A stretch of 64,000 nucleotides of DNA, from contig OX345641.1 of the NCBI GenBank assembly GCA_947044365.1, positions 1,223,960-1,287,959 of the forward strand, given 5' to 3'. Made by a program: the position numbers and the translations under genes. Under the pieces are notes generated by a model that made no database searches, was not told the origin of the DNA, and saw only the letters and a program-made list of their open reading frames with translations. Each line of letters opens with the position of its first letter. Position 1 is the stretch's first letter. Of the stretch, positions 18,201 through 39,747 are shown piece by piece. This DNA comes from Petrosia ficiformis. Its lineage: Eukaryota > Porifera > Demospongiae > Haplosclerida > Petrosiidae.

Positions 18201-19859
18201 CATTACTGAAGATAACAAATATTGGTGATTTCGAAGTCATTGAAACTGAAATTGAGTATACCACTGAGACTACAGGAATAAACATGCAATGTTTGTTCCA
18301 GAAAGAATCTTTTTATTCAGAAATGTTGCCCTGATATATATAGAATATTCACCGTACTTAGAGGTTCCTATTACGCTCAAGATTATGTCAGCATAATTCG
18401 CCAATGCCTAAGCCTTACCTGTTGCAGTGAGTAGGAGCATAATTAGTTAAATTTATAATAAATGTAGCCAGAAGAGTTGTGTCAGTCAACTATCTTTATA
18501 TTAACAAGAGTGGCCTCTGCAATTTATGTACTAAGGTTAAGAGTGGTACATAAAAAAAATTATTTATCTGACACATTCCAATAATTGTTAATTGAATGGA
18601 CATTCTTCAGCCGTTATAATTACATAACAAATAATACTCTTATACTTTCATAGATACTACATAATTTATATAATTACATTCATACATGTATGATGCATCA
18701 AAGAGGTCAACATTACTATAATTATGATGTTATATATACAATTGTTTAAACACTCACCTTTTAAAAAATGAATCCATCTAAAAGTTGTAGTTAAATTCCA
18801 CATAAGAACGATGCATGCCTGTACACGTCTTAACAATGCATGGATTAATGGACAACAAATGAGTGAATGGATGGATGTTGGATGAGTAAGTGATTAGATG
18901 AATGAAGAATGAATGGGTGAATAGATGGAAACAGGATGAGTTACATGTTTCCGTTTCCAACCTAACTATAATTTTTAACACATTTATGTTCTAATCAATA
19001 GGCTTGAGAAGTTTGAAACCATAATATGCATTCTGTTTCATTTACGATACCAACACAAGCATAATGGTCACGTGACCATAATGCATTATTGCAGCCACAT
19101 GACCAAATTTCATCATTTTTAAACCAAAATGCATGCTAGTACAATCAATGAGAACCAAATGCACGCACATTGCTTCAAACTTTTGATTAGAACGCAGATG
19201 ACAAAACCTCCTTGTAAACCTTAACCCATATTACTATAACTATATTAGCAATATAACAATTAAATATCTTTTATTTTGTGATTTTCATTTATACATAATA
19301 ATACAGGCTCCAGATAATATTAGACCTTGGCTCAAAATTCATAAGGGTATGGTAACTCTAACCCTCTAAATTTGATATGTCTTCCTCGTTCACATTGTAA
19401 TTATTAGTCTCACTTTTGATTTTTATTATTTTCATGACTATGGACTTGATTTGGGAACTTAAACAATGATATAGATAGCTGGCCAAAATGCCAAATTAGT
19501 TTAACACTAGGTCTGTTGAGTATTGTATATAATCTGTATAGTTAGACACAATATTATTCCAGCATCAGTGTGGATTCTAGTGAAATAAGCTTATTGTACC
19601 CTACAAAAATAAATAATTATACAGACAGCCCAACACAGTCTTAGCTGATTATCACATTTGTGATGTTTGATTTTCCCCATGGTTTTTAAAAAAAAAAATT
19701 GTCCTTTAATATTTGTCATGGCTGACAATCAATAGTGAGAAATCACAAATTGCTATGTAGTGATTAAAAAAATCTACAAAAAAAATAAATAAAATGCACA
19801 TTCATACATCCATAATAATTTTACAGATCATGTATATATATAATTAGATATCTACTTAT
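15211..19859. other. Long gene-poor stretch
   Basis: AT-rich DNA. Open frames near 16.8 and 17.5-18.0 kb have hydrophobic, compositionally biased translations with no recognisable domain or splice context. Small inverted repeats occur at 15558-15690 (arms gttgttcacaatgac) and 15734-15775 (arms cagtttggttattt). A palindromic ggtcacgtgacc lies near 19065 and a GGAT-like simple repeat near 18840-18930. No gene is called. Confidence 0.6.
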
Positions 19860-20982
19860 CTAGTTTAGTGTGTGTTGTGATGATAGTGAGAGAAATTCTC
19901 CCCTTGTTTTTGGATTATCTCGAAGCTCTCCTAACATATAGCTGGTTATAGTTTTACTTCCAGGTTTACTCACTCCTCGCATTGTCATGCACATATGACT
20001 ATATATAATTTAGAAAAATGCAATGCATATGGATATAGATAAAATTGATCTGAGCATTTTGCAATGGACATAATTATGCACAATTATAAAGTTCTTACGT
20101 TGCTTCTATAATTACTCCAACTCCTCTTGGATTAACAGCCTCTTGAATAGCTTCAGCAATTTGCCTGGTGAGCCGCTCTTGAAGCTGGAATCTTCTACTG
20201 TACATTTCCACAACCCTGAAATCCCATGCATGCAACATTTAATTATGATATGCATCAAGTGGTAACGTGGACATACCTAGCTATCTTACTCAATCCTATT
20301 ACCTTCCCATGAGGTAAATAGCCAACTGATACTTTTCCATAGAAAGGTAGTAAATGGTGCTCACAAAGGGAATATACATCAATTCCTGAAACCTGTATCA
20401 GCTCATCGTACTCCTCTTGAAATATGCCATCTCCAACTATATCTGTAATCATGTGAAGAAATGATTGAAGACTGGACTGCATTATTAATTAATTATAAAT
20501 GCGAAGGCTGCGAAGGCATTGTAATGAACACGCCCACTAAAGTCTGTTCACATTCACGATGTCCTCAAAATTAGGATGTAATGACATTATATGTAGTACA
20601 GTGTATAGTTTAATGTCATAATGTTAATACATGAATATACTGTAACTCAATAATGAAGCAATGGATTGAGATTTGACATACACAAAAAAGAACGGGAAAG
20701 ATAATTATTTGAAAATGGTGCAGGTAAAAAGATAGCTGGTCATTTCAAACTAAAGTTATGAGCATTTTTCTGAGGACAAGGTGATTATGAATGACCTTTA
20801 ATTTATTGTGTGGAAGGAGTTTCATAAGCAACTTTTGTCAGGTTTATAACTCTGGAAATGTACATGACCGAAGATTCTAACTTGTTTTGCTTGAAGAAAG
20901 AGTTGTTAAGAGACCTTTAATGTAAATATATAAATAAGGCTTGTTATTACACTACAAATAATAATTATAATAATGATAATTA

Positions 20983-21023
<41 letters not shown>

Positions 21024-21758
21024 GTATTTTTGTTTGTTTTCAAGCCTGTAGCACATGCAGAGAGTATGGTTGTACTATCTATGCATTTTATTATTTCAAG
21101 ACGTGTCTGGTTGTCATAGCTCACTGGTGAGAGCACGTATGGCTGAAGTCAGCAGCCCTGGCTGGGTTCAATTTCATACTGAAAGAGGCAACTGTAAAAT
21201 GATTTTTCACATTCCTCTTTCAGCCTTATTATTCAGAATTTATATAACATTTATTTTCTATGTGAAGCAAGATTAGCATAGCATTGGAAATGGGTGTTTT
21301 AGAAAAACTTGATCAAGTAACAGTAACTTCTCTATATCTCTTAGGAATATAATAATAATAATAATATATATTTTATACAGCAGATATTTCTTTATTATGG
21401 AGCTAGCCATTAGATGGCCTTTGTCTTTAGTTGTTTATATAATATTATGGTGTTCATTATATAAAATGGTGATAACAAGCATACAAATAACTGACTCACC
21501 CTGTATATTTTGCTCATAACCTTTAGTTAAGAAGCAAAGCGTTTTAGCAGCTCTCTCAGGAGTATTCTGGAGGCCATCTCTTTTTGAATCTTCGCCTAAG
21601 GCTTCTATTGTTTTGCGAAAGGATTCTGACAACACTTCTAGCTTCTCTTCTGCTAATTTTTTTTCTTCTGTAGATTTCCATTCTTCGTGGTTCTGTGAAT
21701 CTAAATTTGAGAGGGGTAGTCTGCGCTCTGCTGTAAACGTATTCGTCATTCCAATCAC
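19860..21758 (-). CDS. GCH1: GTP cyclohydrolase I
   Basis: Converts GTP to 7,8-dihydroneopterin triphosphate, the first step of tetrahydrobiopterin synthesis, in the cytosol. There are four exons: 21500-21758, 20277-20442, 20099-20215 and 19860-19998; they sum to 681 nt, giving 226 residues. The hallmark block [10 protein letters not shown] supplies the zinc-binding Cys and His of the active site, and HMCMTMRG near the C terminus supplies the second zinc Cys. [16 protein letters not shown] and the RLQVQERLT-like [14 protein letters not shown] segment also match the family. The first 45 or so residues are a divergent charged N terminus, as in animal orthologues. Exon 2 begins at gattacag followed by ATATAG, which restores phase 1. 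The start ATG at 21758 is the first in the exon; a second Met lies three residues on. The upstream neighbour FARSA is co-oriented and 354 bp away. The function suits the adjacent BH4-dependent hydroxylases. Confidence 0.95.
20580..21180. repeat. Repeats inside GCH1 intron 1
   Basis: The 1,057-nt intron holds three elements: an inverted copy of the dispersed repeat (20580-20800), a (TA)n microsatellite near 20985-21020, and a tRNA-like head with A box TAGCTCACTGG (21117-21127) and B-like box GGTTCAATTTC (21165-21175). The last is probably a SINE fragment. Confidence 0.65.
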
Positions 21759-22112
21759 TCACCACAATTAATCGTTTGCAATAACATGTCACCTGACCAC
21801 AATGTTTTTACAGATATATATATACTTCGTTAAGTGTCATTACATATCAACCAATAATAATGTATTATGACATAGACCTCAACCTTGCAGCTGTAGGCAT
21901 GCACGTATGCAGGCAAGATGCATAATAACAGATTTTAACAGTTTTGTAAAAAAAAAAAAATATTAAACTTAATTGTAACTAGCAAAAACACATACATGTA
22001 TACAAACTAATCATATATAAGCTACAAATAATCAGTTACTAAAATTATTCAGAGAAAACAATTAGTGTAATTTGTTTTGTATAAAGTCTAGAACAAAAAT
22101 TGAGCATCTCCA
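21759..22112. other. GCH1-FARSA spacer
   Basis: 354 bp between the stop of FARSA and the start of GCH1. It must hold the FARSA 3' end and the GCH1 promoter. No clear TATA box or initiator can be singled out in the AT-rich sequence. Confidence 0.5.
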
Positions 22113-24826
22113 TCACTTATCCAAACGGCATATTGGGTTTTTGTAAACCATTTCCAGGTTAACTTTGTGTCCTACCAAATCACGAATGTTGTTATACCCA
22201 TACTTGATCATTGTCGGCCTACAAAACAAAATAGATGCTAATAAATACAAAGCAAATCTCACCAATCCACCTTTCCAAAGAAAGTCCCCAAGCAATAACA
22301 GAAACATTTTCTGGTAGGCCCATAGGTAGAAGCATCTCAGGACGAAAAACACCAGAATTACCAACTTCTACCCACTTCTTCAATCCATCGTGGTAACTAA
22401 ACACTTCCATGCTGGGTTCAGTATATGGATTGTATGTGGGCTTGAAACGAAGCCGTTCTATGCCTATCACATTATGACAGCATAAATGGCATTAAATATA
22501 ATATGGAAAGTTAAAGATACCCATTTTGCTGAAGAATGCATGAAGACTCCCCATTAGGTCACCCAGTGTGAGATCATAATCAGCCACTACTCCTTCGATT
22601 TGATGAAACTCTGCCAAATGTGTTGCGTCAAGTGTTTCATTGCGAAATACCCGATCAATAGAAAAATATTTGACTGGCTGGAACTCTTTCTGACAATGAA
22701 GTGGGAATGTATGAATGAGTGAAGCATTGACATAAAAATATACCTGTTGGCCCAATTTATACAACATACGAGCACTAACAGCTGTTGTATGGGTTCTAAG
22801 AATGTTCTTTTGAGCTTCTTCTAACTTCCAGACACAATTATACCTATAATAATGGTAATCATTAATACACAAATTCAATACAATATACCCAGTTGATCCA
22901 TAGCCTCCTGTTTGATGAACCTTCTTTACACGTTCAAGATATTCCATGGGAAATTCATACGAACACTGAGGATCTGTGTAATTATTATTAATAAAATTTT
23001 ATATAGAGACAAGCTCTGTAACCTTTCAGAAAAAAAGTATCGTGAGCATCTCTTGCAGGATGCTGCTGTGGTTGAAAAAGTGCATCAAAATTCCAAAATG
23101 AACTTTCAGTGAAAGTGTTTGTTGGCATTTCCGTAAATCTATTTTAAGTGAAGCTTAAGTAATTAGAATTATCATTATATGCATTTGTGCCAACCCCATT
23201 TCCAAAAATATTTGGCGTATCTCTGTACGAACTTTCATCAGTGGATGCAAATGACCACAGGACAGTGGTGTACCGAAAGCATCAAAATTATATAATTTGA
23301 AGTTCTTTGACTTCCATGAGCCACTACAAAAATGTAAATTATAATAAATCATGTTAGTACAGTACTTAAGGTTGCATGTATGCATGTGCGTTCAGCATGG
23401 TAGTAAGAGTGAGAACATACGTTTGTATCATATCTGCAGTAAGTTCAGATTCCTGTTTTACTATTTCAGTAGAAAACGATTCACCTTGAGTCACTACAAA
23501 GTTTTTCACCACACTACTCATGTATAGAAATATTGCAATTATATTTTAAAATTTAATGGTAAATTATAATATAGTTGCTCACACTTTTGCAATGAGTTTC
23601 CTCTTCTTGTATTCTTTCAGCATGTCTTCAGAATATTCATTAACAGATGAGTGTGAAATCTTTTTAAGTACTTCCTGCACTGTATCAGTTATTGTTGGCA
23701 CCTATAAAAGAAACAAAGTATTTTATGGTGATCAGATAGTGTACACTATCTGTTTATACCTTCCTGAAAACCATAACATTCTTTCCTGTGTTTCCAACAC
23801 TTATCCAGTTAGCAGACATTGCTTTTTTGAATCCTACCTCAGCATTTGACACAACAGACTGAGGAGATAAATATACTTTGCATTTAATATCTGTGAATGC
23901 ATGTTTTAGAAGGGAACAGCTGAAGTAACTGGAACAAGGATATAACTACTCAATTACTACACATGGCAAACACATTTTCACTTAGCTTAAACTGTATCAC
24001 TATAATTATAATTATTATATGCAGGCATATGCAGAATTCAGTGGTACCGTTTTGCTTATTAATTATTCAGAAGTTATTAATTAATGAAGGCAGGTGCACA
24101 CAGGCCACTTTTTACACTATTTGGGGTTTAACGTGGTTAGCTAGAGAGAAAAACATCAAAAAAACATAGATAGTAAAATCGACCTAGAAATATAGCTCAG
24201 AAAAAGGAAGTATTACCCAGGTCTTTAATTATATGCTTATGTATTCAAAACATAGAAATTATCCACACGTAAGTCAGTTTGATACTCTTCGGAAGAAGTG
24301 TTATTGTGATTCCAATACAAATAGTAAATTCCATTGTTATTTCCATGAATGTAATACACAAAATTATATAATGTACATAGCGCAATAGTGCATGTAAATA
24401 GTGAGACTATTAGTGTATAAACACACAAAAAAACAAATGTAGTTACCATGAGCTCTGACTGCAATGTTCCTTTCTCTGGGTTAATGGCATAAAAGACCTG
24501 AGCCTCATGAGAACCATGTTTCACAATATCTTTTCCTTCATCAGTCAACACCCATCTGTCTGACTGCAGCTGCTCTACTTGCACTACCTATATATAAACG
24601 GAAGACAGAATTTGTAAGCATAGCTATACTATAATTATATAATTATTATATATAATATATGAAACAGCACAACTTAGTAATTTACATCTCCTAACGACTG
24701 CAAACTCTTGATTGCACCAACAATCATTTGGTGATCTTGGCCAGTATCGCAGGCATGTTGATAAGAATCCAAAATCTTGTGTTCAGCAAGAAAGTGCAAG
24801 ATCTCCTGCGCTTTGTTTTCTGCCAT
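22113..24826 (-). CDS. FARSA: Cytosolic phenylalanyl-tRNA synthetase alpha subunit
   Basis: Catalytic subunit of the cytosolic (alpha-beta)2 enzyme that ligates Phe to tRNA-Phe. Twelve exons: 24686-24826, 24447-24587, 23760-23858, 23583-23701, 23421-23513, 23195-23323, 23023-23138, 22889-22973, 22744-22843, 22521-22689, 22271-22463 and 22113-22218. They sum to 1,491 nt, or 496 residues (the human subunit is about 508). Residues about 1-150 are the winged-helix DNA/tRNA-binding N terminus. The class II catalytic core follows with motif 2 ([19 protein letters not shown]), the substrate loop [10 protein letters not shown], and motif 3 ([13 protein letters not shown]). The C terminus is CRLDK. 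All catalytic blocks look intact. The start ATG lies 137 bp from the FARSB start on the other strand. Confidence 0.97.
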
Positions 24827-24963
24827 GATGTGTGCAGATCTTCTTCGAAGACTTCAAACTGCAATTATAATATCAGGATGACGTAAGACGATGACGTTTA
24901 ATTATAACTGCTCTGCAAAATTAACAATCTTCTTGCTCTTCTGAGGATAGCAAGTCTGATAAG
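24827..24963. promoter_or_regulatory. Bidirectional FARSA/FARSB promoter region
   Basis: The two start codons (cat at 24824-24826 and atg at 24964-24966) face away from each other across only 137 bp. Both 5' untranslated regions and both promoters must fit here. The sequence is AT-rich with a few gacg motifs (tgacgtaagacgatgacg at about 24881-24897). The first resembles a CRE/ATF half site (TGACGTAA), which is suggestive but unproven. Confidence 0.75.
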
Positions 24964-25168
24964 ATGCCGACATTAGATGTTCGCAAAAAAACTCTTTGTC
25001 AAGCCTTAGGGAAAGACTACAGTAAGTTTTTCAGTAACTATAATACTTTATTATTAATTTTAATAATCATCCTAATGTTTCAGCTGATGAAGAATTTGAG
25101 GAGCTTTGCTTTGACTTCGGTCTTGAGCTGGACGAAATTGTAAGCGCTTATTAAAGCTATATATATAT

Positions 25169-25231
<63 letters not shown>

Positions 25232-28057
25232 TATATATACACATTATTTATATTATAATTATACATAATTATAATATAATAACATGATAATTATGTATAT
25301 ATTATTATTATATAAAAGATAGATATTGAAAAATTTTTGATATAAATTATTACAACAGACGTCAGAGCGACAAATGATAACACGTGAACAAGGAGAAGAA
25401 AAGGCTAAAGATGCATCAGATGATATTATATACAAGATTGATGTTCCAGCCAATAGGTGATTATTTATAACACACAGCATACATATGTGATGCCTTCATT
25501 CTTCAAGGTATGACTTACTCTGTGTTGAGGGATTGACTAGAGCGTTGAAGGTCTATCATCAAAGGTACTGAATTCATCTGATAATTACATTTTCTTGACT
25601 GAATACATTTTTAGTATGAAAATGCCTATTTACAAAGCTATAAAACCAAATCATGTCACCAAACTTGTTATTAAGCCAGAGGTACTTTAATATAAATCAA
25701 CAGTTATTGTGCAATTGAAATGTATTTATTATATTCTATAGACAGCACAGGTGAGACCATTTGCTGTTGCTGCAATTTTGAGGAATGTGACCTTCACTGA
25801 GGTTTGTATAATTTTTTGCAGTAATATTTTCAATTTGCATGAGTATATGAAATCACAATTATAGGCTAACTATAAGAGTTTGATTGACCTGCAAGAAAAA
25901 CTCCATCAGAACATTGGCAGGTACATAATTATTATAATCTCATTTCATTTACGTGCTTATATCCAATTGTGTCAAAACAGAAAACGAACTATAGTAGCCA
26001 TTGGAATTCATGATCTAGACACAATTGAAGGACCTTTCACATTTGATGCAAAACCACCAGAGAGCATAAAGTTTAAACCTCTCAATGAAGTTAGTTCTTT
26101 CGTTAGTTGTAATTAGCTAACTATTATTTAACATTTTATAGGATAAGGAGTACACTGCTGTGGAACTTATGACACTTTATGCCGTAAGTGTAATCAAATA
26201 AAGTGTGCATTACTAAACATTTGCCATTTTTGTATAGAACGATCCAAAGTATAACCATTTGAAACCATATCTATCAATTATCCAAGACAAAACTGTTTAT
26301 CCAGTGATATATGACAAAAATGGAGTGGTTTTGTCACTTCCTCCCATTATTAATGGTATAGCGATTACTTTTTCAGTGAACATACATATTTTATCTGATT
26401 ATCACTATAGGGAATCACACTCGACTTAAACTGACTTCTAAAAATCTGTTTATTGAGGTGACAGCTACTGACCAAGCAAAGGCTACAATTGTTCTAAACA
26501 ATATTGTTGCTATGTTCAGTCAATATTGTGAACAACCATATGTGTGAGCTCAATTTAATCATTTTACATTATTGATGTTATTATAATTATGCAATGTATA
26601 ATTACTATAATATAAACCTGCTATGTTCACACAGGGCAGAGAATGCAGAAGTGGAAACTCCCAACAAATCTACAAAACTATATCCAGTATGATACTGATG
26701 CATGGAGCATATAACATATGATATCTGTATAATGTACACATCTGTTAACAGGAACTGCAGTATCGCACAATGACTGTGGAAATTGATCTTATAAATCGGC
26801 GAGTTGGAATTTCTGAAGAAGGCAAAGCTTTGGCAGTTATGTTAACAAAAATGGGTCTTGAGAGTGAAGTTATTAATGGAGGAAAACACCTCAAGGTGGT
26901 TATACCACCAACGAGAGCAGGTATACACTGTAATTACATATACTAATACAAACTTTATATGTTAAGTTCATTTACAGATATTCTCCATACTTGCGACATT
27001 ATTGAAGATGCTGCTATTGCATATGGTTATAACAACATTTCTATGACCTTTCCAAAGACTAACACTGTTGCTAAACAGGTTAAAAAGATTATATAGCTAA
27101 TCTACCTTCATGACTCATATATAATTATTATTCTTTAACATAGATGCCATTGAACAAGCTCTCTGAACAATTGAGGGTGGAAACTGCACAGACTGGGTTC
27201 ACTGAAGCTCTAACCTTTGCCCTTGCAAGTTATTACATTCTTGTTATTGCTTCAATTTTATATGTGTCTACTTGATTAATAACTATAGTGCTCACAAGCT
27301 GATGTTGCCTCCAAACTCAAGAAAAAAATGGAAGATATTCCAGCTGTGCACATCAGTAACCCCAAAACAATGGAATTTCAAGTAATGATGTCAAATTGAA
27401 CTTAGCTAGCATATAATTATACTTTATTCTCACAAAGGTTGCACGAACTACTCTTCTTCCTGGTCTTCTTAAAACAGTTGCAGCAAACAAAAACTTGCCA
27501 CTACCACTGAAAGTATTTGAAATCTCTGATGTTGTTGTCAAAGATTCTTCCAAAGGTATATAATTATATATTATATATATATATATATATAACAGAATTA
27601 TATGTGACTTCACTATAATTATATAAATGTAATACAGATGTAGGTGCCAGAAATGAACGTAGGCTCTGTGCAGTGTACTACGGAAAAACTCCTGGTTTTG
27701 AGGTATAAAAGCTTTTTAAATAATAATTATTATTATACAATACACTAAAAGATTATTCATGGCCTTTTGGATCGACTAATGGAAGTATTGGGAGTGAAGT
27801 ACACTAAAGAAAGCTCTGATGGTTACTATATTAAGGCTGCAAATGGTTTGTTCTTTCAATTTCATACTTATAGTTACCATCTGATCTTTTTTTTGTTGAT
27901 TTTAGATCCTTCTTTCTTCCATGGAAGTAGCGCTGATGTGTTAGTAGGTGGTAAAGTAGCTGGACAACTTGGAATACTTCATCCTGAAGTTCTTCCATGT
28001 TTTGAGCTTAACATGCCTACTTCTGTGCTTGAAATAAACATTGAACTATTTGTTTGA
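24964..28057 (+). CDS. FARSB: Cytosolic phenylalanyl-tRNA synthetase beta subunit
   Basis: Partner of FARSA; it carries the B3/B4 editing region and the tRNA-recognition domains. Twenty exons: 24964-25021, 25084-25139, 25359-25456, 25508-25564, 25615-25681, 25742-25801, 25865-25920, 25981-26089, 26142-26183, 26238-26355, 26411-26543, 26635-26686, 26752-26920, 26978-27078, 27144-27224, 27289-27381, 27438-27555, 27638-27702, 27752-27845 and 27906-28057. The sum is 1,779 nt, 592 residues, close to human (589). Landmarks are [19 protein letters not shown] at the start, [69 protein letters not shown] and the C-terminal [11 protein letters not shown]. The intron after exon 15 uses a GC donor (CTT|gcaagt). 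Intron 2 carries a long TA microsatellite. Confidence 0.97.
25155..25225. repeat. (TA)n microsatellite in FARSB intron 2
   Basis: A long alternating TA run broken by a few G residues. It accounts for the larger size of this intron compared with its neighbours. Confidence 0.95.
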
Positions 28058-28425
28058 GTTTATTTTTATTATGCTTGTGCATTAATTTTGATTTATAATT
28101 ATTTACAAAATTATTAATGATTTTTAGTAGACTTTACACAATAATTGTTGTCCAAAATTGATCTGAGATTTGGCCACCTGCAGAGTTAAGTTTATAACAC
28201 ACCACTGCTCCAAGTATATAATTACACATGGATGTATATTTACCCTGCATTGGCCTGGCCCAGGCAGACTAACCGCAGTACAAGTGTAAATGCACAGTAT
28301 AATAATTATACATGTATAAAGATGAAATATGTGCATACAATGCAAACCGTCTGTGGGTTAAAAGTGCATGATAACATTTCTGCAGCAATCTGCACCAATA
28401 CTCGGTATACACGTTTGCTTGCAAA
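28058..28425. other. FARSB-PAH1 spacer
   Basis: 368 bp of intergenic DNA holding the FARSB 3' end and the promoter of the first hydroxylase. The sequence just before its start (ctcggtatacacgtttgcttgc) resembles the one before the second hydroxylase (cgatactcagtacgtttgcttgc). The proximal promoter/5' UTR was therefore duplicated with the gene. Confidence 0.6.
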
Positions 28426-30404
28426 ATGGCCAAGAAAGGAGACGGAAAAGATTACCCAACGATGACGCTTCCATCAGGCAAGAAGGGTATGTTACAAACC
28501 AATTCTGTTGCTTTATATAAATTATATATATAATAAATAATCTAGATTATATATATGTATATAAATTAATTATATATAATTTTATATGTCTACAAAATTA
28601 TGATAATAATAATTATATATTATATCTTTTTTTCAAGCACAATTTTGGTTCCCAACTACGATCAGCGATTTGGACGAGAGAGCAAACGAAGTTTTAGAAG
28701 GAGGCAAGGATCTGCAAGCAGATCACCCAGTGAGTTGTTTTTGATTTATAATATTACAATATTATGTGTGTATTATTGTTTCTTACAGGGTTTTCATGAT
28801 GAAACGTATAGGAAAAGAAGGGAATACTTCGAAAACATTGCAACGTCATATCGACAGTGAGAAAACTGTAACGTACACAGCCGCGTGGGCAACGCCCAAC
28901 TTTCATGTTTCTGTAACAATTCTAAGTATAATTATATATAATAGCCATATATATTATTATATATTAGGATATATATATATAATAATAATTATTATATTAT
29001 GTATATAATTATTACTCTAGTGTCATTATATAAACACACTAATATTTCATTCTGCAGTGGTCAACAAATCCCTCGTGCAGAATATACTCCTGAAGAAGTA
29101 GAAACTTGGTGAGGGATTTATTCAAAGACTAAAATAATAATTACTATAAAAATTATACAGGGGTATTGTGTTCGAGAAACTAACAGCACTCTATCCAACT
29201 CATGCATGCAGTGAACACAACAAAGTATTTCCTCTTTTGGAGCAGAACTGTGGTTACAGGTATTATTTTCATAATTGGACAGTACCTCGTAACCTAACTA
29301 GGCATGGACCTGGCAATTACCTATAGGCTATATAGTTTTGCTGTTACTTTTGACATTATTTACTTTACATTTACGAGTGTGATGCCACTTCACTCATTTC
29401 TTTCATGCAGGAAAGATAACATTCCACAGTTGGAAGATATTTCCAGATTTATTAAAGGTTTGAATTACTGACATGCATGCATGGGTTGATCATGTATTGC
29501 TCTACTGCAATTCATATTTTCACTAGGACAAACTGGTTTTCAACTTCGTCCTGTTGCTGGGCTTTTGTCATCTCGTGATTTTCTTGCTGGACTAGCTTTT
29601 CGTGTGTTCCATTCTACACAGTATATTCGACATGGGAAAAATCCACAATACACTCCTGAACCGTGAGAAATTAAAATAACACACTATGTTAACATTTTAA
29701 AAACGTTTAATAACATAGGGATGTTTGTCATGAACTTCTTGGACATGCTCCTTTATTCTGCGATCCCAGCTTTGCAGATTTCTCTCAGGTTTACAATATT
29801 TGTAATAATAATCATAATATAATACTGCTAATTCATTGTATGAGTAATTTTTATCTATAGGAGATTGGACTGATATCTCTTGGTGCTTCTGATGATGACA
29901 TTGAAAAACTTTCCACTGTAAGATATATAATAATATAAAGCATATTCTATCCTGTTAATTTTATTTATTAATTTACAGTTGTACTGGTTTACGATTGAAT
30001 TTGGCATGTGCAAACAAAATGGTGAAGAAAGAGCTTACGGAGCTGGAATATTATCCTCATTTGGGGAGTTGCAAGTGAGATTAACACTGCTTCTGTATGA
30101 CATGTAACTTTGACTACTTATTTTAATGTAAAAGTATTGTCTAACTGGAGCACCAGAGAAACGACCATTTATCCCAGAAGAAACAGCTGTGCAAGAAGTT
30201 CCTATAACAAAATTCCAACCTGTATATTTTGTGGCAGAAAGTTTTGATGATGCTAAGAAAAAGTTGAGGTAAGATAAAAATTATAATGTTATTTTGTATC
30301 TGCTATGGATTGTTTTCTAAAGGGAGTGGACTAAAACAATCAAGAAACCATTTACTCTTCACTATGATGCATCAACTGAAAGTGTGAAAATTGTGGAAAT
30401 TTGA
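28426..30404 (+). CDS. Aromatic amino acid hydroxylase (PAH-like), copy 1
   Basis: BH4- and iron-dependent monooxygenase, best matched by phenylalanine hydroxylase (Phe to Tyr). Twelve exons: 28426-28486, 28638-28729, 28789-28856, 29058-29108, 29161-29259, 29411-29457, 29527-29662, 29719-29788, 29861-29917, 29979-30074, 30135-30268 and 30323-30404. They total 993 nt, or 330 residues. The iron ligands are visible as HELLGH (two His) and the Glu of [25 protein letters not shown] and [14 protein letters not shown] match the pterin/substrate region. The protein begins only about 20 residues before the catalytic domain. The N-terminal ACT regulatory domain of animal PAH (about 110 residues) is absent, and the C terminus stops without the long tetramerisation helix. 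Tyrosine or tryptophan hydroxylase activity cannot be excluded, although several substrate-pocket segments look PAH/TH-like rather than TPH-like. Confidence 0.93.
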
Positions 30405-30863
30405 CTGTTTGCTAACCTTTTTTGACTTGAGTAATTGTGTGTCTCTTTTATTTGCAATATAGCTGAGTGGTATATTCCAGTTTTTAGTTAGTTCGTATAA
30501 TTGTAGTAGTTAGTATAATTTTTTTGTTTCCTTGTAATTATTATTTTTATAATTATTTATAAATATTATATTCAAATTGTGTTAATTGGAAAATGCGTAT
30601 AAACTTGCATAATCTAGTTGGCTTTTGAGCCTTTTCTTGATTTGCAGACATGAAAATTCCAAAGTTAGCTGACACATATATGAAAGTTACACTAAACTAA
30701 ATTCTTTGTACAACATGTGTAACATTTTATTGACGAAATATAATCATCATGTGATCATGACAGGATTTGTGCAGTCATCAGCTGTATAACTATATATAGA
30801 GAAGTGCAAACTTAGCGCTGTATATATCAACGATACTCAGTACGTTTGCTTGCAGTCACTGAA
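30405..30863. other. PAH1-PAH2 spacer
   Basis: 459 bp of AT-rich intergenic DNA. The last 25 bp before the PAH2 start are similar to those before PAH1. No other feature seen. Confidence 0.6.
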
Positions 30864-33800
30864 ATGGCCAAAAAAAGAGACGGAAAAGATTACCCAATGA
30901 TGATGCTTCCATATGGGGAAAAGGGTAAGCTCTGTCGCTTCGTTTAGAGATTAGATATTTATGTTTCTTTTTTTTTTACAATACAAGCAAAAATTTGGTT
31001 CCCAACTAACGCTTATGATTTGGACGAGAGAGCAAATGAAGTCTTAGTGGGAGGCAAAGATATTAAAAACACACACCATCCAGTAAGTTCTTGTCATTCC
31101 ATTACTATCTGTAGCAATTGTTGTCTTATCATTGTTCACATGAAGAGCTTTAACGACAAAGAGTATCTGGAACGAAAGAAACTATTTATAGATATAGCGA
31201 TGTCATATAAACAGTAAGTTAAAGTTTTATAGTTGTGATATATAAGTATATTAGACGTCTATAATCAAATATAATGAAATTATAATAATGACAATAATTT
31301 ATATCCTACGAGTGCTTATTAATGATCCAAGAGCCGTAGCCCCGCGAGTGCGAGATGTAATTAATTAGTCTATACGCGAATTATGTTCGCCTAAGAGTAG
31401 GCGAATTATGTTCTCCTTAAAGTTTCGTTTTGAGTTTGGACCAGGTTAGTTTGTGTTGTTGTGGGTTTTTATAACTAATATTTATCATCTGTTTGCACTG
31501 TGTTGTCAGTTGTGGTTAAAATAGCTCTATAAATTTATATATATGTAATATATATAGGCATGCTAACAGGTCCTATATACAAGATATAGGACCTGAGTTT
31601 TTTGTCCAAGGATGTGATATAGCCCGAGGCTGCAAGGGCTATATCACATCCGAGGACACAAAACGAGGGTCCTATATTTTGTATATAGGACCTGTTAGTA
31701 TAGTATATACAATATAATTATTGTATGATGGTGACATCTCCTGCATAGTGTGCACAAAGGTCTATATACAATATATAGAACTCACCACATCAAAGAAATG
31801 ATGTCACCATCATACTATAGACCTCTGAAACATGATGATGCACAGTTATAATATATAATATAATTTTTATAATGATCGGCTCTGGGAAAAGTCATTATTT
31901 TCATTATTAAATTTGATGTCACATTCCCAAGAGGTTGAAATGCTAGGCTGGTTTTAATTATTATTATATAAATCCATAGAACCGTGGAGGACTTACAAGC
32001 CACCTAATTATCATAAAGCCTGTTATAGTTAGTTTTGGAAATTGCAGAGGGCTTATATTATAAAGTTTTGTGTGATTTAGGTGGAACTCATATAAGTTCT
32101 TTGTACTTTCCATAACTAATTTAGCATTCCATTGAGTCCTACCTATGTCCAACTTTGCCATTGAAATCGCATTGATTTAGATTAGGGTTGTTGTAGTTAG
32201 GGTTGGGGTTAGAGTTCAATCAATATCAAAGTCCATACCCTTTTAATGTTTTACAACCACATGAAGTAACGTCTTTAGTGACAACTTGACTTAATTTTCA
32301 GGTGTTAAAAATAGCCTAATTTTTAGCAACGTTTTGTGTAAGAAATATGTGTCTAAAATCAATCACTTTTCTAATTATAGTACTCAGTGAGTTTTTTAAT
32401 TATGAACGGTCTTGAACCAATTGCACTTTGCTTTATCTTTTTGAAGACGTGGATTGCTTTAATAGTAAAACGTTTCACAAGAACATACATGTCAACTTAA
32501 ACAAGGTTTGATATGGTTATATATATACATACACATCCTTCTGGAGTAACTGCTTCAATAATTTTTATGAAGCACCATGGCAATGCATAATTATCTTGGT
32601 CATACTTTATTATAATGATTTTTGTGTTGTATACAACATTTGCTATACTTTATAACTGAAGGATGTGGATCCATTGGATTGCTTGCCTATCAATCATTTA
32701 ACATCTTTAGTAAAGTTTTAGATAGAGATGAAGGAATAACTTTAGAATGATCATTTGCTACTCTGGCCAGCTGTTTGTAATCATTACAAACAGCCAGAGT
32801 TGCAAAAGATCATCCTCAATGTTTTCTTCCTGTACTGAACTGATCCTGACCTCTGAATATTTCTCACCTGACCTCATTCAATAAAAAAAAGGACTTTGAT
32901 TAACAAGAGTATCACTTTCTCAGAGTTGATCAAATATAGCTAATTATCATTACATTTTCTTTAAAACACTGCAGTGGCCAGCCTATCCCATATGTCGAAT
33001 ACAATTCTGATGAAGTAAATACTTGGTATGAGTTAATTTGTAAATAAGTACCCTATAGTCATACAAATTCAATCTATGTATAGGAATACTGTATTTGAGA
33101 AACTAACTAAACTCTATCCAACTCATGCCTGCAAAGAACATAACAGTGCATTTAGTCTCTTGAAGAAGAAATGTGGTTACAGGTATAATTATTTATGTAT
33201 ATTTATGTTTTTTATAGCCCACGTGCAATTGACCATCCCTATGATTGCTTACCACGGGATTTAATGTATATAATAATTATAATTATATAATTATGCTTGT
33301 GTCACTATGAGTTGTATATGTAATTAAGGAAGTTGCATCATTCTGAGGGGCTTGGTCAATTAATATATTGGATACTGTGTATAATAGAAAGTGCACTGGG
33401 CCATGATTTCTGAATGCTGGGCACCACAATTCTACTAAGGATACTTTTTTCTCCATATATGTATGACCCAACCAGGCTAATTTTAATGTTGCTCTTGAAA
33501 TCATATATTTTACATCTATAATAACTACAGTGTCTAGAGTTCTAGCAATGGGACCAGTATATTCTTGATTATAGCCAAACTACATAGTTAGGGTTCAAAG
33601 TTGCTGTAGTAATCAGTATAGTAGTGCTACTGGGCTCACTTCCTGAGGTTTTTAATGATATTCATTTAAATTATGCTTTGAAGACCCATTCTTGGGACTC
33701 TAATGAATAATATAATTATACTGGTCCTGTTGCTGGAACTCTAGCAGCCTTAATAATTCTTTCACTTCTTTCATGCAGGAAAGGTAACATTCCACAGTTA

Positions 33801-34925
33801 GAAGATGTTTCTAATTTTATTAAAGGTTTGAATTTACCATAAAGCTGATATATATACTACTGATGCTGCAATGTAATATCATGTAATAATTATAATTATA
33901 CACTAGCTCAAACTGGTTTTCAACTACGTCCTGTTGCTGGTCTTTTGCCATCACGTGATTTTCTGGCTGGATTAGCTTTTCGTGTTTTTCATTGTACACA
34001 GTATGTTCGACATCCGAATGATCCAGAATACAATCCAGAACCGTGAGAAATCAAATTAGTATAATCATACAATATATAATTGACTCTCTTTAATAACATA
34101 GGGATCTTTGTCATGAACTTCTTGGACATGTTGCTCTCTTGTGTGACCCTACTTTTGCAGATTTCTGTCAGGTGAATGATTAAGATATTTTATTAAAAAA
34201 GTAATATTGTTGCAAATCATTTACAATTTCTTCCTTTATAGGAGTTTGGACTGATATCTCTTGGGGCTTCTGATGAAGATATTGAAAAACTTGCTGCAGT
34301 AAGCTAAATTTTTTATTTTATATATATATTTGTTTATTTGTATCACTTTCAGTTATACTGGTTTACAATTGAATTTGGTATATGCAAAGAAAATGGTGAG
34401 GAGAAAGCATATGGGTCTGGATTACTATCTTCATATGGGGAGTTGCAGGTGAGAATATTACTCTGTTATATATATGACTTGTGATATTACAATTATAACT
34501 TTACTACAAGGAATGTCTAACTGAAAAGACAAAGAAAAAACAGTTCATTCCAGAAGATGCAGCTATGCAAAAATATGATATTCCAAATAAACAAAAGATA
34601 TATTTTGTAGCGGAAACTTTTGGTGATGCAATCGAAAAGATGATGTAAGGGTAAAAACAAATTTTATAATGGATAGTTGTTATATCTGCTCATGATTTTT
34701 GTCAAGGGAGTGGACTCTCAGGGCAATCAAGAAACCATTTACTCTTCACTATGACAAAACAACTGAGGCTGTGAAAATAGATAGAATAGAGGAACCAGGT
34801 ATAGTTTACATATAACTCTCTCTCTCTCTCTCTTTCGTAAGCACTATAGCTTTTTTTCACTGTATATAACAGGACTAACAAAACTTCACACAATAATTAC
34901 TGTAGAAGCCTGCGCGCTACTATAA
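30864..34925 (+). CDS. Aromatic amino acid hydroxylase (PAH-like), copy 2
   Basis: Tandem paralogue of the preceding gene with the same exon boundaries: 30864-30924, 30988-31082, 31146-31213, 32975-33025, 33084-33182, 33779-33825, 33907-34042, 34102-34171, 34242-34298, 34353-34448, 34511-34644 and 34707-34798. A likely last exon is 34873-34925, giving 352 residues. Reading through the last donor would instead stop at 34815. HELLGH and TIEFG iron ligands are kept. Differences from copy 1 include PSRD for [18 protein letters not shown] for [14 protein letters not shown], one extra codon in exon 2 and an added C-terminal tail. It too lacks the ACT regulatory domain. Intron 3 is 1,761 nt, far longer than in copy 1, and carries large palindromes; intron 5 is also enlarged. 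Intact sites suggest an active enzyme, possibly with altered substrate or expression. Confidence 0.92.
31563..31698. repeat. 136-bp near-perfect palindrome in PAH2 intron 3
   Basis: The arms run from ctaacaggtcctatatac to its reverse complement gtatataggacctgttag. They also contain ggatgtgatatagccc and its complement around a loop of about 10 nt (gaggctgcaa). A second inverted pair (gatggtgacatc / gatgtcaccatc) lies at about 31725-31815. This may be a MITE or a palindromic insertion able to form a hairpin. Confidence 0.85.
32758..32808. repeat. Short perfect hairpin in PAH2 intron 3
   Basis: Arms actctggc...ctgtttgtaat and attacaaacag...ccagagt pair almost completely with practically no loop, forming a second structured element within the same intron. 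Confidence 0.8.
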
Positions 34926-35054
34926 TTATACAGTGTATTTAATTATTGCTTTTAATAAATAAATCAATGGTGATAATTATCAATTACTGTTTGTATAATA
35001 ATCAGTGAACAATTAGAGGAAAAAATGTCTTTCAAGTAAAGTATTGTTAGAATG

Positions 35055-35258
35055 TCAGAGTTTCATGGCTTCAACACAATCATTTTCTTCCTTTGTTGAA
35101 TAAACAAAGTGGGAAGAGTTTTGCAAGATATCCATTAGGGGCTGCATGTAAATGGATAATAGAGAACTTTCAAACACTTGCTTGCGTAGCTGCATGTATT
35201 TCTGCAACAAACAATCATTCTGGTACTTCCGAGTTTCTTGAAAATCTTGTAAAGACAA
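35055..35258 (-). other. Unrecognised minus-strand open frame with exon-like 5' edge
   Basis: The minus strand encodes about 63 residues (FQETRKYQNDCLLQKYMQLR then KQVFESSLLSI), helical and non-repetitive in composition, preceded by ttttgtctttacaag, a good acceptor. It sits between PAH2 and the ZU5 gene, both on the + strand. A possible upstream exon (35277-35320) with a gtaagc donor does not join in frame. It could be the last exon of a small gene or a retrocopied fragment. I do not recognise the family. Confidence 0.25.
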
Positions 35259-35421
35259 AAATACGTATATCTAGAAAGTTGCTTACAAAATCCTGCTCAT
35301 GGCACAGAATTAAAAGAAATTGTTACTAGTCGATCATGTAAATAATTATATTCTTGTCTGTCCCCGCCTTTTTAGTGATATTTTGGTTGCATGAGACTAA
35401 ACCTTAGCCTGTTTTTTAATA

Positions 35422-38400
35422 ATGGGTAAAGTGACCTTCATGAATAATAGATGACACCAAAATGTTTTGGTGCGTAATGATATGATTTTTTTTTATCAAT
35501 AGTGAAATACTACTCACAAGTGTTTTACAAGTGTCAATCTCCTCAAGAATGGGAGATGTTTTTTGTGATATCTAAAGATAATCCTGAAAATAAACAAGTT
35601 AGTTATAGTCAATCATGAAATAGTAAATTTAATTGCGTATGATTTTTAGTTTGTAAAGAAAGTGTATTCTGACTATCTTAAGGATGTTGATCAGATATTA
35701 GAACTGGATGAAAATGTGACACACCTCCAATTAATGAAAGACAGTAGTCCTATATATCCATGGGAAATGAGTGAAATCACAACAGCTGAGGTATTTCATT
35801 AATTATAATGATAATGAATTTGATTGTATTAATGTAATTATTTCCAGATTGATAGAGATGAAATTGATCACTTCATTCCTGAATCCACTCGTGTTCCACA
35901 TTGTCACTTCAAGTTTTTCTGGCAGTCAGAATTATCACCACCAAAACTTTTGAAGACAAAATTTCAGTTGTTAGGAGCTAAAGGACAAAATAACATGTTT
36001 TATGTGGTTTTACCTAGAGACACCTCAACAGGTATTTATTTTACTATAATATTAATAATAATAATTATGCTTCAGGGAATGGCTTTTTTTTCGGGCAAAG
36101 ATTGCTTCAACATTTTGTATGCATATTGTTGACAAATGTTGACAAGCAAATATGGCTGTTATAGTGTTGCTTTACTGTCATAATAACTGCTTACTACTTA
36201 GATTGTGTATAAAAATGTAGCTGTAATTTATAATTATAGTTATAGTTAATCTGAATTTATAGTTTAGAAATTTTAGTTGATGGTAACTAGCTAAGTGAAT
36301 TAAGAGTATACATTTGATTGTGTTCTAATGTGATTTGTTATAATTATATTAATTATTTTTTTAATAGATGCTGTAACTATTATTGATGAATATATGTTCA
36401 CTTTGAATGAGACAGAAGCTACCATCGAATTACCAGTATATAATTTGTGTATACATGTGCCAGAAGCTTGCGTTACTAAGTCAACAAAAATGTTTATAAG
36501 ACCTGTTGCTGCTGGTGATTTTGAACTACCACCCGATTGCATACAAGTGAGTGGTATCTACCAAATAGAATGTTCTGAGAAGCTGGAAAAGGATATCACC
36601 TTACAACTCAGACATTATGCTGTAGTCGATTCACTGAAAGAGAGTGCTAACTTCAGTTTCTATTCCGCCGATGCTTTCCTTGGGCCACCTTATGTGTTTA
36701 AAAAGGTAGAGAGTGATTCATTCGTCATAGACAACATGTCTGCCACTATTAAACTGTGTAAATTCTCATATGTAAGCGTACTTGAGTCTGGAAGTTCAGT
36801 GTTACGATATTGTTCTCAAGTGTTCTACAAAATCTCCTCCGAACCTCCATGCCATATTGATATGCAGATTGTTGTAACTAAAAGTGGACATGACGCAACA
36901 GAGGTAATTGTTAAAAGTGCAATGTAACATATTTCATTACACATTTTTAGTTTGTGAAGGAATCATACAAGGAACGTGGCTATGATGAATATGCTGATCA
37001 GACGATAACTTTCAAGCAAGATAAAGTTTCTCTTAAAGTAGAACCAGAAAATGTAGATTTAGAGACTTGGAAAATGACTGCAAAAGTATATCCTGAGGTA
37101 ATTCATCATGCAGACATAAGCCTTCGTGTATAGCTAATTACATTATAATTATTTTATTATAGATTAAGAAGAATGAGATTGATGATTTCAAGCCACGTGT
37201 TTCTGGCTCTATTCCTCACTGTTGCTATGATTTTCGATGGCCATCAAACTCATCTCCAACTCCTTTATCAGTGAAGTTTAATTTAGTAGATGCTGATGAT
37301 CCACACAACTATTTCAATGTGTATATACATGCAGCAGGTATGAATTTCATTTATACATCTCTCTGGTTTTCATTTTTGTGTTGTTTCACTTTTACTTAAT
37401 GATGCTTTGACGAATACTGTACATTTAAACTCAGGTTTACCACACCATAATACTCGAGAAGATTCTCATGTAACCGTTTCTTCTGTTGAACTCAGTATAT
37501 TTAAAGGCCATCTCTCTGACATGTTAGACCTAATATCTGATCCAGACACAGAGAGACTAGCTAATGATCTCTCAGCAGTTGATCTAATACCATTTTCTGT
37601 CCTAGATAACATCATGACTACAAATCTCTCTCGTTATCAAAAAGCTAGTAAGCTATTACATCAGATTCATAGATCACTCGAAGCCAGACACTCCAATAAA
37701 TCAGAGATTTTAGTGAAGTTCTATGATGTATTGAACAGGCTAGACAATCCAGACCTCTCAAGAATAGCTCAAGATATATTAAATGAATTAGGTAGGGAAT
37801 ATCAATACGATCATATCAAGCATGTAAAGTGTTAGATGCACTGTTGGAGAAAGGACATATATATATCCATGCATTTGTTATAACCAACTCCGCTGATGGA
37901 ACAATGATTGAGCTACTTCTTCTGTTGCTCCCAGGCCCTAAAATAGTGTTAGTAGCATCTCTATGGCTATATAGTTATTACTTCAACAGGGCAAGTTGCT
38001 AACCTTATGCAGACTAGTTGTGTTAATATCCTCTATAGTGTTATAATATACATTGAAGACATTAATATGATTGAGTATATAATTATTAGGGCTGGGACGA
38101 TTAATCAATTAATCGATTAATCAATCGATATTGAAAATTCTTCTGATTATCGATTATAAGTCTGTGATATCAATTGTTCTAATTATTCCATAAGACATAC
38201 TTTTCAAGCATGTGACGGCGAATAATGTACAATATGGAAGTGATAGGAAGTTTTTTTGATCATCAAATGGGAGGAGTTTCTTGTATTAATTGCCTTAATT
38301 GGCCTAATTACTTCTGCTGATTTTAATCGATTATCAATTGACTTGAAGTTAGGGATAATCGATTTCAGAATCTCAGCCGATTCCCAGCCCTAATAATTAT

Positions 38401-39058: not shown

Positions 39059-39747
39059 TTATTATTTAAGAGTACGCTAATTCTTTATAACAAATAAATA
39101 TGTGTACGTTTGTGTAATTATGAAGTATCTTTGGTCAAATATGCACTATGCTAAATACAGGCATACTTGCATGTCTTTTTTTAATCTTATTCTTGTAGCT
39201 AATTGCTCTTTATATGCATATTTATGATTATATATATACACATTTTGAATGTGAGACTTAAAGAATTGTAACACTGTACCACATTTGAACTGCAGAGTGT
39301 TGCTTTCCATGCACAGGAATCTGAAAGTTTTCTGTTCTTAATGCTTGGCTAGCTTGGTCAAATAATGGGTATGGTGCATATATGTGTACACTAAGGAGGT
39401 TAAAGTAATTTGGGACATGCTACTTCCAAGGCACATGTACAGTGAAACTTGGTTTTGTAAATACATAGGTGTCTACATTTGCTAGACTCCAAATATGTAA
39501 AAGTGAGGGTGTTGCAACTACTATAGAGACTGTTTAAAACAGGAAAATGACTGTCTCTACACATACTGTATTAACTTGAATCAGTACTGATCCTTCAATA
39601 ATCTACTTCATGTTCTGATTGCCTTGAATCAAACTATATTAATTATTCTACATGTATTTACTGTACTAACTACTATAGTTTATATACCATGACCTTTCTG
39701 GTGGGTATGTACCAAGTTATTAATTTAACTAAAGCTAACTATTGGCA
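39059..39747. other. Intergenic before locus B
   Basis: AT-rich DNA with no gene seen. It should contain the promoter of the ankyrin/ROCO-like locus B. Confidence 0.5.

What the first reader, a model, noticed from the sequence alone, without database searches (positions are those of the whole stretch)
19860..34925. Five adjacent genes for phenylalanine use and its BH4 cofactor: GCH1, FARSA, FARSB and two hydroxylases
Seen: five intact genes with no other gene between them, in the order GCH1(-) FARSA(-) FARSB(+) PAH-like 1(+) PAH-like 2(+), with spacers of 354, 137, 368 and 459 bp. Known: GCH1 starts BH4 synthesis, BH4 is the cofactor of PAH, and PheRS and PAH compete for phenylalanine. Inference: this is a functional neighbourhood, an animal metabolic gene cluster that could share chromatin or regulatory control and balance Phe between protein synthesis and hydroxylation. 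Chance adjacency in a compact genome is the alternative.
Basis: partly seen in the sequence, partly recalled or inferred. Interest (0 to 1): 0.9.

Follow-up and report, generated by a model that had tools for sequence, protein, structure and literature searches.

The report
Triplicated sponge phenylalanine gene cluster
A sponge carries, beside its normal scattered copies, a compact cluster of extra copies of genes that use phenylalanine or make the helper molecule for its conversion, and the cluster occurs three times, which suggests a dedicated metabolic module rather than chance neighbours.

Summary
In detail: five multi-exon genes, GCH1(-) FARSA(-) FARSB(+) PAH1(+) PAH2(+), lie side by side. 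(1) These are not the sponge's ordinary genes. Searches found one unlinked copy of each family: GCH1 on contig C4, FARSA on C12, FARSB on C18, and a full PAH with ACT domain on C16. The cluster proteins are 63-74% identical to these. (2) The cassette occurs three times on contig C6, about 65 and 70 kb apart, with one further lone PAH2. The window copy is the only one with all five genes whole. Between it and copy c, four of five genes show purifying selection (dN/dS 0.14-0.21 at dS 0.26-0.54). Apparent transcripts of PAH1 (99%) and FARSA (96%) are in a protein database. The cluster PAHs lack the regulatory ACT domain and the C-terminal helix but keep the iron ligands. Chance adjacency is very unlikely. 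Most likely this is an animal metabolic gene bundle: GCH1 makes BH4, PAH1 turns phenylalanine into tyrosine without feedback, and a second PheRS keeps tRNA-Phe correctly charged. The PheRS role and end product are inferred. Synteny in other sponges and co-expression could not be tested.

The parts
19863..21749 (-). GCH1 paralogue (GTP cyclohydrolase I), 4 coding exons, 223 aa; stop codon follows, ending at 19860
   Evidence: PF01227, 240.7 bits; singleton paralogue on C4 65% identical
22116..24826 (-). FARSA paralogue (PheRS alpha), 12 coding exons, 496 aa
   Evidence: singleton on C12 74% identical, also modelled with 12 exons; apparent transcript P0241 96%
24827..24963 (.). 137-bp divergent spacer between the FARSA and FARSB start codons, presumed bidirectional promoter (95 bp in copies a and c)
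24964..28054 (+). FARSB paralogue (PheRS beta), 20 coding exons, 592 aa, with B1, B3/4 editing, B5 and catalytic-like domains
   Evidence: singleton on C18 64% identical
28411..28423 (+). 13-base block ACGTTTGCTTGCA just before the PAH1 start codon, also before PAH2 of b, c and the lone copy, and with 1 difference before PAH1 of copy c
28426..30401 (+). PAH1: aromatic amino acid hydroxylase, 12 exons, 330 aa, no ACT domain and no C-terminal tetramerisation helix
   Evidence: apparent transcript P0121 99% identical on a 1322-base contig, its Pfam match; catalytic residues
30842..30854 (+). the same 13-base block before the PAH2 start codon
30864..34815 (+). PAH2: second hydroxylase, 12 exons, about 336-340 aa (or to 34925 with one more splice); weak constraint, T278N in the pocket
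35000..37797 (+). downstream stretch with a multi-exon gene (no Pfam match for the two ORFs tested) that is copied next to cassette c (97%) and next to the lone PAH2 (90%)

Best explanation
It is an animal metabolic gene bundle made of second copies of primary-metabolism genes brought together at one place. GCH1 makes the first intermediate of BH4. PAH1 (perhaps with PAH2) uses BH4 to hydroxylate phenylalanine, most likely to tyrosine, and having no ACT domain and no C-terminal helix it runs without the usual phenylalanine gating. The second PheRS, made in balanced amounts from a divergent alpha/beta promoter, keeps tRNA-Phe charged and free of tyrosine in the cells where phenylalanine is drained and tyrosine rises. 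Shown: gene identities, second-copy status, triplication, coding constraint, absence of the two PAH domains, apparent transcripts for two of the five genes. Inferred: joint expression in one cell type, reaction product, and the protective role of PheRS. My estimate is about 0.85 that the cluster is functional and not chance, and about 0.45 for this particular role of PheRS.
For: Whole-genome family searches found one unlinked copy of each family plus the C6 copies (a FARS2-like C7 frame set apart). The cassette recurs at C6 1179-1197k, 1244-1259k and 1314-1329k in the same order and orientation. dN/dS between window copy b and copy c is 0.19 GCH1, 0.15 FARSA, 0.14 FARSB, 0.21 PAH1. Apparent transcripts are P0121 (PAH1) and P0241 (FARSA). 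ACT domain and C-terminal helix are present in the C16 singleton but absent from the cluster PAHs. Iron ligands H285, H290, E330 are kept in 6 of 6 cluster rows examined (PAH1 of copy a, which lost that part, was not among them), and in PAH1 of b and c all listed BH4 and substrate contacts; the meta-hydroxylase pair is absent. PheRS pocket N410, Y412, F438 and beta N238 match human (alignments; residues from PMC3275996 passages). Yeast cytosolic PheRS discriminates Phe from Tyr only 120-fold, and its editing protects against high Tyr (PMC4066437 passages). Sponge oro bundle precedent (PMC12833800, parts 1-2 of 5 and passages).
Against: No co-expression, chromatin or chemistry data. No other sponge genome could be searched for the arrangement, and none of the 120 listed hits to the cluster FARSB exceeds 64%. 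Copies a and c lack the conserved last 29 residues of GCH1; copy a also lost the FARSB start codon, 8 bases in FARSB exon 17 and a 306-base stretch of PAH1, so only one complete copy exists. PAH2 is weakly constrained (dN/dS 0.80, few changes). Other BH4 genes were found elsewhere: PTPS C10, PCD C2, GFRP C4, and the decarboxylase family gave no match on C6. The cassette sits in a stretch of repeatedly copied sequence, which by itself could explain triplication. The cluster PheRS differs from ordinary PheRS about as much as ordinary rows differ from each other at conserved columns, so apart from alpha A408T nothing points to altered specificity.
Confidence: 0.5

Rival explanations
1. Biosynthetic cluster with a self-resistance gene: GCH1 and the hydroxylases make a hydroxylated phenylalanine product (or a further derivative) that poisons or is mischarged by ordinary PheRS, and the cluster PheRS is the insensitive second copy.
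For: Duplicated target enzyme, both subunits, inside a cluster of precursor enzymes. Yeast cytosolic PheRS charges meta-tyrosine, and human cytosolic PheRS does not hydrolyse meta-Tyr-tRNA-Phe (PMC4066437 and PMC3275996 passages). In the fumonisin cluster of a fungus a cluster-borne ceramide synthase (FUM18) gave high resistance when expressed in yeast (PMC11209526 abstract). Alpha A408T beside the phenylalanine pocket is in 4 of 4 cluster rows and 0 of 8 other rows.
Against: PAH1 and PAH2 keep the residues read here as para-hydroxylase positions (mapping to F331/G346 is my inference). Pocket and editing residues named in the papers are unchanged. No tailoring enzyme was seen in the cassette, and no compound is known. 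In the fumonisin case deleting the cluster copies left resistance nearly unchanged (same abstract). A library search for phenylalanyl-tRNA synthetase with self-resistance and biosynthetic gene cluster found 0 papers, so no direct precedent was seen.
Confidence: 0.2
2. The genes came together by chance in a compact genome and the group was then copied passively within an unstable stretch of chromosome.
For: A. queenslandica has a median spacer of 587 bp, and 11,379 of 40,122 genes are head-to-head within 1 kb (PMC4773876 passages), so tight spacing alone means little. The cassette lies among repeatedly copied sequence. Two of three copies are damaged. Spacers are poorly conserved.
Against: Four families whose other copies lie on four other contigs, two of them subunits of one enzyme, would have had to land together; naive probability near 5e-13. 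Coding constraint persisted between copies.
Confidence: 0.12
3. The cluster PheRS does not serve translation but supplies an activated amino acid or Phe-tRNA to a biosynthetic step.
For: Aminoacyl-tRNA synthetase copies do occur in biosynthetic clusters of bacteria (recalled, no call). The catalytic core is kept.
Against: The tRNA-binding and editing domains are retained, and no acceptor enzyme was seen in the cassette.
Confidence: 0.08
4. A dosage or stage-specific second set for a tissue with heavy demand for tyrosine and protein, without any protective role of PheRS.
For: Same named catalytic residues as the normal enzymes; PheRS divergence at conserved columns within the range of ordinary rows; apparent transcripts.
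Against: The stem of the cluster FARSB is about twice that of the singleton (0.45 against 0.23), and the PAHs have no regulatory domain, which a pure dosage copy would not need to lose.
Confidence: 0.1

Closest known systems
oro biosynthetic gene bundle of oroidin sponges (PMC12833800; parts 1-2 of 5 of the text and passages read)
   Same: A sponge chromosome region in which relatives of primary-metabolism genes were collected and repurposed.
   Different: oro genes are spread out among unrelated genes and five proteins were assayed; here the genes are directly adjacent, the unit is triplicated, it contains a second copy of a translation enzyme, and nothing has been assayed.
Animal phenylalanine 4-hydroxylase (PAH)
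   Same: Catalytic domain 63% identical to the sponge singleton, up to 69% to other PAHs listed; iron ligands and the listed BH4 and substrate contacts kept in PAH1.
   Different: No ACT domain and no C-terminal helix; PAH2 has T278N and, in some copies, proline at 250 or 251.
Eukaryotic cytosolic PheRS (FARSA/FARSB)
   Same: The expected domain set (one small alpha domain just under its cut-off) and the named pocket and editing residues.
   Different: A second set, encoded divergently 137 bp apart, while the singleton alpha and beta genes lie on separate contigs.
Bacterial phenylalanine 3-hydroxylase (PMC7027792, part 1 of 3 and passages read)
   Same: Same enzyme superfamily in a biosynthetic cluster, acting on phenylalanine.
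   Different: The cluster PAHs keep the Phe and Gly that this family replaces by Cys and Thr (positions mapped by inference).
Cluster-borne copies of a target enzyme (fumonisin ceramide synthases, PMC11209526 abstract)
   Same: A copy of a housekeeping enzyme sits in a metabolic cluster.
   Different: Insensitivity of the sponge copy to any compound is untested, and even in the fungus deletion of the cluster copies changed resistance little.

Membership tests
Biosynthetic gene cluster or bundle (oro type) | Non-homologous genes of related function physically together | tested here: met
Biosynthetic gene cluster or bundle (oro type) | Members are second copies of primary-metabolism genes that exist elsewhere | tested here: met
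   one unlinked copy of each family found: (six-frame searches, counts are lower bounds)
Biosynthetic gene cluster or bundle (oro type) | Kept in producing species, absent from non-producers | not testable with these tools
   no other sponge genome held; protein hits only
Biosynthetic gene cluster or bundle (oro type) | Enzymes shown to make a defined product | not testable with these tools
   needs assays
Phenylalanine 4-hydroxylase (animal, tetrameric) | Biopterin_H domain with 2-His-1-Glu iron site | tested here: met
   H285, H290, E330 in 6 of 6 cluster rows examined (PAH1 of copy a left out); PF00351 531.6 bits for P0121 and 466.4 for PAH2
Phenylalanine 4-hydroxylase (animal, tetrameric) | N-terminal ACT domain | tested here: not met
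   absent in PAH1, PAH2 and transcript P0121; present in C16; search of the cluster's own strand no better than 8 shuffles
Phenylalanine 4-hydroxylase (animal, tetrameric) | C-terminal tetramerisation helix; NCBIfam equivalog cut-off | tested here: not met
   sequence ends at rat position about 426 of 453; TIGR01268 539.9 against cut-off 704.8 for P0121
Eukaryotic cytosolic PheRS | alpha core with DBD domains; beta with B1, B3/4, B5, CLM | tested here: met
   alpha DBD2 at 25.0 bits is just under its cut-off of 25.9, the others are above
Eukaryotic cytosolic PheRS | Phenylalanine pocket N410, Y412, F438 and editing N238 | tested here: met
   alignments to human 3l4g; residue roles
Bacterial-type phenylalanine 3-hydroxylase | Cys and Thr in place of Phe and Gly of 4-hydroxylases | tested here: not met
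   Phe at 331 kept in 6 of 6 cluster rows; Gly at 346 not among the changed columns; positions mapped by inference
GTP cyclohydrolase I | Full family domain above cut-off | tested here: met
   PF01227 240.7 bits, folE TIGR00063 242.3 against 181.6; end of the domain missing in copies a and c
Self-resistance target copy | Second copy insensitive to the cluster's product | not testable with these tools
   no product known

The most novel reading that the evidence does not exclude
The first animal biosynthetic gene cluster that carries its own copy of a two-subunit housekeeping aminoacyl-tRNA synthetase as self-protection: deregulated hydroxylases with a private BH4 supply make a hydroxylated phenylalanine compound, and the private PheRS keeps the producing cell's translation accurate.
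Probability: 0.25. Interest if true: 0.92.

Novelty: new variant of a known kind. Interest (0 to 1): 0.75.

Why it matters
Gene clusters of primary-metabolism copies are only now being recognised in animals. This one is unusually compact, occurs three times in one genome, and includes both subunits of a translation enzyme. It gives a concrete, testable case of how an animal assembles unlinked genes into a metabolic module, and of whether animals, like microbes, protect their translation from their own chemistry. Searches of the held open-access library for Amphimedon with GTP cyclohydrolase, with phenylalanyl-tRNA synthetase, and for Amphimedon queenslandica with phenylalanine hydroxylase returned 1, 2 and 4 papers. 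I saw passages of two of these seven (PMC4558845, PMC10244343) and only the listing of the other five; none of what I saw describes this cluster. Subscription papers and preprints are not held, so it may still be in print.

Tried and rejected
Editing-dead PheRS: the cluster FARSB has N where human has D after IING. Rejected, because Halichondria and hamster also have N.

Meta-tyrosine synthesis by a bacterial-type signature: not supported.

Replacement of the mitochondrial enzyme: rejected as unneeded. A FARS2-like frame is on C7 ([quoted passage not shown] The cluster proteins begin at the normal cytosolic start.

Retrocopies: rejected, introns kept.

Bacterial contamination: rejected, spliced genes with animal-type sequences.

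ACT domain hidden near the cluster PAHs: on the cluster's strand (window 19001-36000) the C16 ACT part scores 41.0 against 37-56 for 8 shuffles; on the whole minus strand of the window 69.0 against 50-63.5, slightly above, on the strand that carries no PAH, and I take it as noise.

A tRNA gene beside the cluster: none found in the window or in 11 loci scanned (ARAGORN, bacterial setting).

Tyrosyl-tRNA synthetase copy nearby: the family search gave no match on C6.

Conserved control elements: only the short PAH block.

Origin by phylogeny: FARSB cluster plus C18 as one clade is not rejected (p 0.40); FARSA cluster plus C12 is in the best tree with weak support 77/75; AAAH cluster plus C16 is rejected at p 0.028, with long branches present. 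So age and source of the AAAH pair are open.

The DNA search with the whole cassette listed copy a and the lone PAH2 but not copy c, since only 38 of 7707 candidates were scored; copy c rests. The first dN/dS script stopped with an error after its first line and was rerun corrected.
Full report
WHAT IS THERE. Reading the window and splicing it with a protein-to-genome aligner gives five complete multi-exon genes: GCH1(-) 4 exons, FARSA(-) 12, FARSB(+) 20, PAH1(+) 12, PAH2(+) 12. Every intron is GT-AG but one, a GC-AG in FARSB. Pfam places all five (PAH1 through its 99% identical transcript P0121).

SECOND COPIES, NOT THE ORDINARY GENES. The window lies at C6:1223960-1287959 of a 191-Mb, 29-contig assembly. 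Six-frame family searches of the whole assembly place one unlinked copy of each family elsewhere: GCH1 on C4, FARSA on C12, FARSB on C18, AAAH on C16. These counts are lower bounds by the tool's own note, and a search with the B3/4 domain found nothing at all, not even the window's FARSB. A further PheRS-like frame without stops on C7 looks like the mitochondrial enzyme FARS2 (name by inference). Modelled with the same aligner, the singletons are 65% (142 of 219 residues), 74% (364 of 489), 64% (375 of 586) and 63% (194 of 306) identical to the window proteins. FARSA has 12 coding exons in both, so the copies arose as DNA, not from RNA. No call names the species. In trees rooted on a single vertebrate the FARSA genes fall with demosponge rows (96/94); Amphimedon is my guess only.

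THREE CASSETTES. All families recur together on C6 at about 1179-1197k (copy a), 1244-1259k (window, b) and 1314-1329k (c), with one lone PAH2 at 1106-1109k. Order and orientation are the same, with the FARSA and FARSB start positions 137, 95 and 95 bp apart in b, c and a. Copies a and c are almost identical in GCH1, FARSA and FARSB (dS 0, 0.007, 0.008); b is older (dS 0.43-0.54 to c in these genes, 0.26 in PAH1). PAH2 is an exception: b and c differ by dS 0.035, and the adjoining downstream stretch is 97% identical, so this end was copied or converted recently. Copy a has ATT for the FARSB start codon, an 8-base deletion in FARSB exon 17, an inverted duplicate in its last exon, and a 306-base deletion that takes the end of exon 7, exon 8 and nearly all of exon 9 of PAH1; copies a and c lack the conserved last 29 residues of GCH1. 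Only the window copy has all five genes whole.

CONSTRAINT AND EXPRESSION. Between b and c, dN/dS is 0.19 (GCH1, 199 codons), 0.15 (FARSA, 487), 0.14 (FARSB, 592), 0.21 (PAH1, 330) and 0.80 (PAH2, 335; 22 nonsynonymous and 7 synonymous changes) (Nei-Gojobori). Four of five genes were thus kept by selection for long after the copying. In the protein database, 1 of 120 listed hits to PAH1 is 99% identical (the rest 69% or less), 330 aa on a 1322-base contig; since the gene has 12 exons this is read as a transcript, and it confirms the short protein. For FARSA 1 of 120 listed is 96% identical (the rest 71% or less), 493 aa on a 3633-base contig, also read as a transcript, from a close relative or a divergent individual. 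For FARSB 0 of 120 listed exceed 64%, although a 98% match to the C18 singleton is there (P0002). So expression is supported for two of five genes. The FARSB result counts against the reading or reflects sampling.

WHAT THE PROTEINS LOOK LIKE. The C16 hydroxylase is a full PAH with ACT domain and C-terminal helix (its first small exons are unsure). The cluster PAHs have neither, and no convincing ACT-like stretch was found beside them. Iron ligands H285, H290, E330 are kept in 6 of 6 rows examined; PAH2 has T278N in 4 of 4 rows and proline at 250 or 251 in some (residue roles recalled). Of 149 columns invariant in six other PAHs, 50 differ in at least one of six cluster rows, some only as gaps in the partial copy a row. 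The Cys/Thr pair of phenylalanine 3-hydroxylases (PMC7027792, part 1 of 3 and passages) is absent. For PheRS, 27 of 238 invariant beta columns and 11 of 234 invariant alpha columns differ in at least one cluster row. For copy b alone the rates are 17 of 238 (7.1%) and 7 of 234 (3.0%), for copy c 8.8% and 4.3%, against leave-one-out rates of 2.5-9.8% and 1.3-4.5% for the eight ordinary rows. So the cluster PheRS is not unusually divergent at conserved columns. The named pocket and editing residues are kept. Alpha A408T, two residues from N410, is in 4 of 4 cluster rows and 0 of 8 others.

PHYLOGENY. Cluster FARSB, FARSA and AAAH copies each form one clade, 100/100. The stem of the cluster FARSB is 0.45 against 0.23 for the singleton. 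The FARSA cluster falls with C12 and one unnamed protein (92/92). The AAAH cluster does not group with C16 (AU p 0.028) and is not firmly excluded from the sponge PAHs (p 0.09); branches are long. No GCH1 tree was built.

SURROUNDINGS. Sequence of window 35-46 kb recurs many times on C6 1.11-1.35 Mb and elsewhere; the four long open frames tested there have no Pfam match. Other long frames of the window give weak COR matches under the cut-off and one Death domain above it (10 frames tested). Triplication could therefore be passive; assembly of the cassette from families housed on four other contigs hardly could. Other BH4 and amine genes were found elsewhere: GFRP C4, PCD C2 (three matches within 45 kb), PTPS C10, decarboxylases C4 and C13.

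HOW IT MOST LIKELY WORKS. GCH1 feeds BH4, deregulated PAH1 drains phenylalanine into tyrosine, and the private PheRS keeps tRNA-Phe charged with the right amino acid under low Phe and high Tyr. Yeast cytosolic PheRS prefers Phe over Tyr only 120-fold, and loss of its editing makes cells sensitive to high Tyr (PMC4066437 passages). The link to this cluster is inference. Self-resistance to a hydroxylated product is the bolder reading.

KNOWN OR NEW. The nearest precedent is the oro bundle of sponges, relatives of primary-metabolism genes gathered and repurposed (PMC12833800, parts 1-2 of 5 and passages; 'Amphimedon', 'phenylalanine' and 'tRNA' have 0 occurrences in its main text). A paper on monoamines removed a single unstable A. 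queenslandica sequence from the TH/TPH clade (PMC10244343 passages); whether it is one of these PAHs is unknown. I file this as a new variant of a known kind.

Noticed in passing
window 20536-20800 and 31528-31819: Two high-copy dispersed repeats (about 86-94% identical copies on many contigs) lie in the GCH1 intron and in PAH2 intron 3.
   Followed up: no
window 35000-46000 and C6 1.11-1.35 Mb: A stretch that recurs many times around the cassettes and on C16, C1, C3, C13 and C6 7.8-7.9 Mb; four long frames in it have no Pfam match.
   Followed up: partly
window 554-3215, 47533-49557, 51092-52750: Long frames with weak COR-A matches under the cut-off, one Death domain above it and a weak AAA match.
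   Followed up: no
G000 C2:12570857-12615916: Three matches to pterin-4a-carbinolamine dehydratase within 45 kb, possibly a tandem expansion of the BH4 recycling enzyme.
   Followed up: no
C6:1186700-1186960 (copy a): The last FARSB exon of copy a contains a 178-base inverted duplicate of its own sequence, 98%.
   Followed up: partly
G000 C4:3441917-3448799: Two neighbouring decarboxylase-family matches in long uninterrupted frames (616 and 580 aa), in a genome whose other genes seen here are intron-rich.
   Followed up: no
P0241: The contig that encodes the FARSA relative is 3633 bases, about 2 kb longer than the coding sequence; a read-through into GCH1, which follows FARSA on the same strand, is conceivable but could not be checked.
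   Followed up: no
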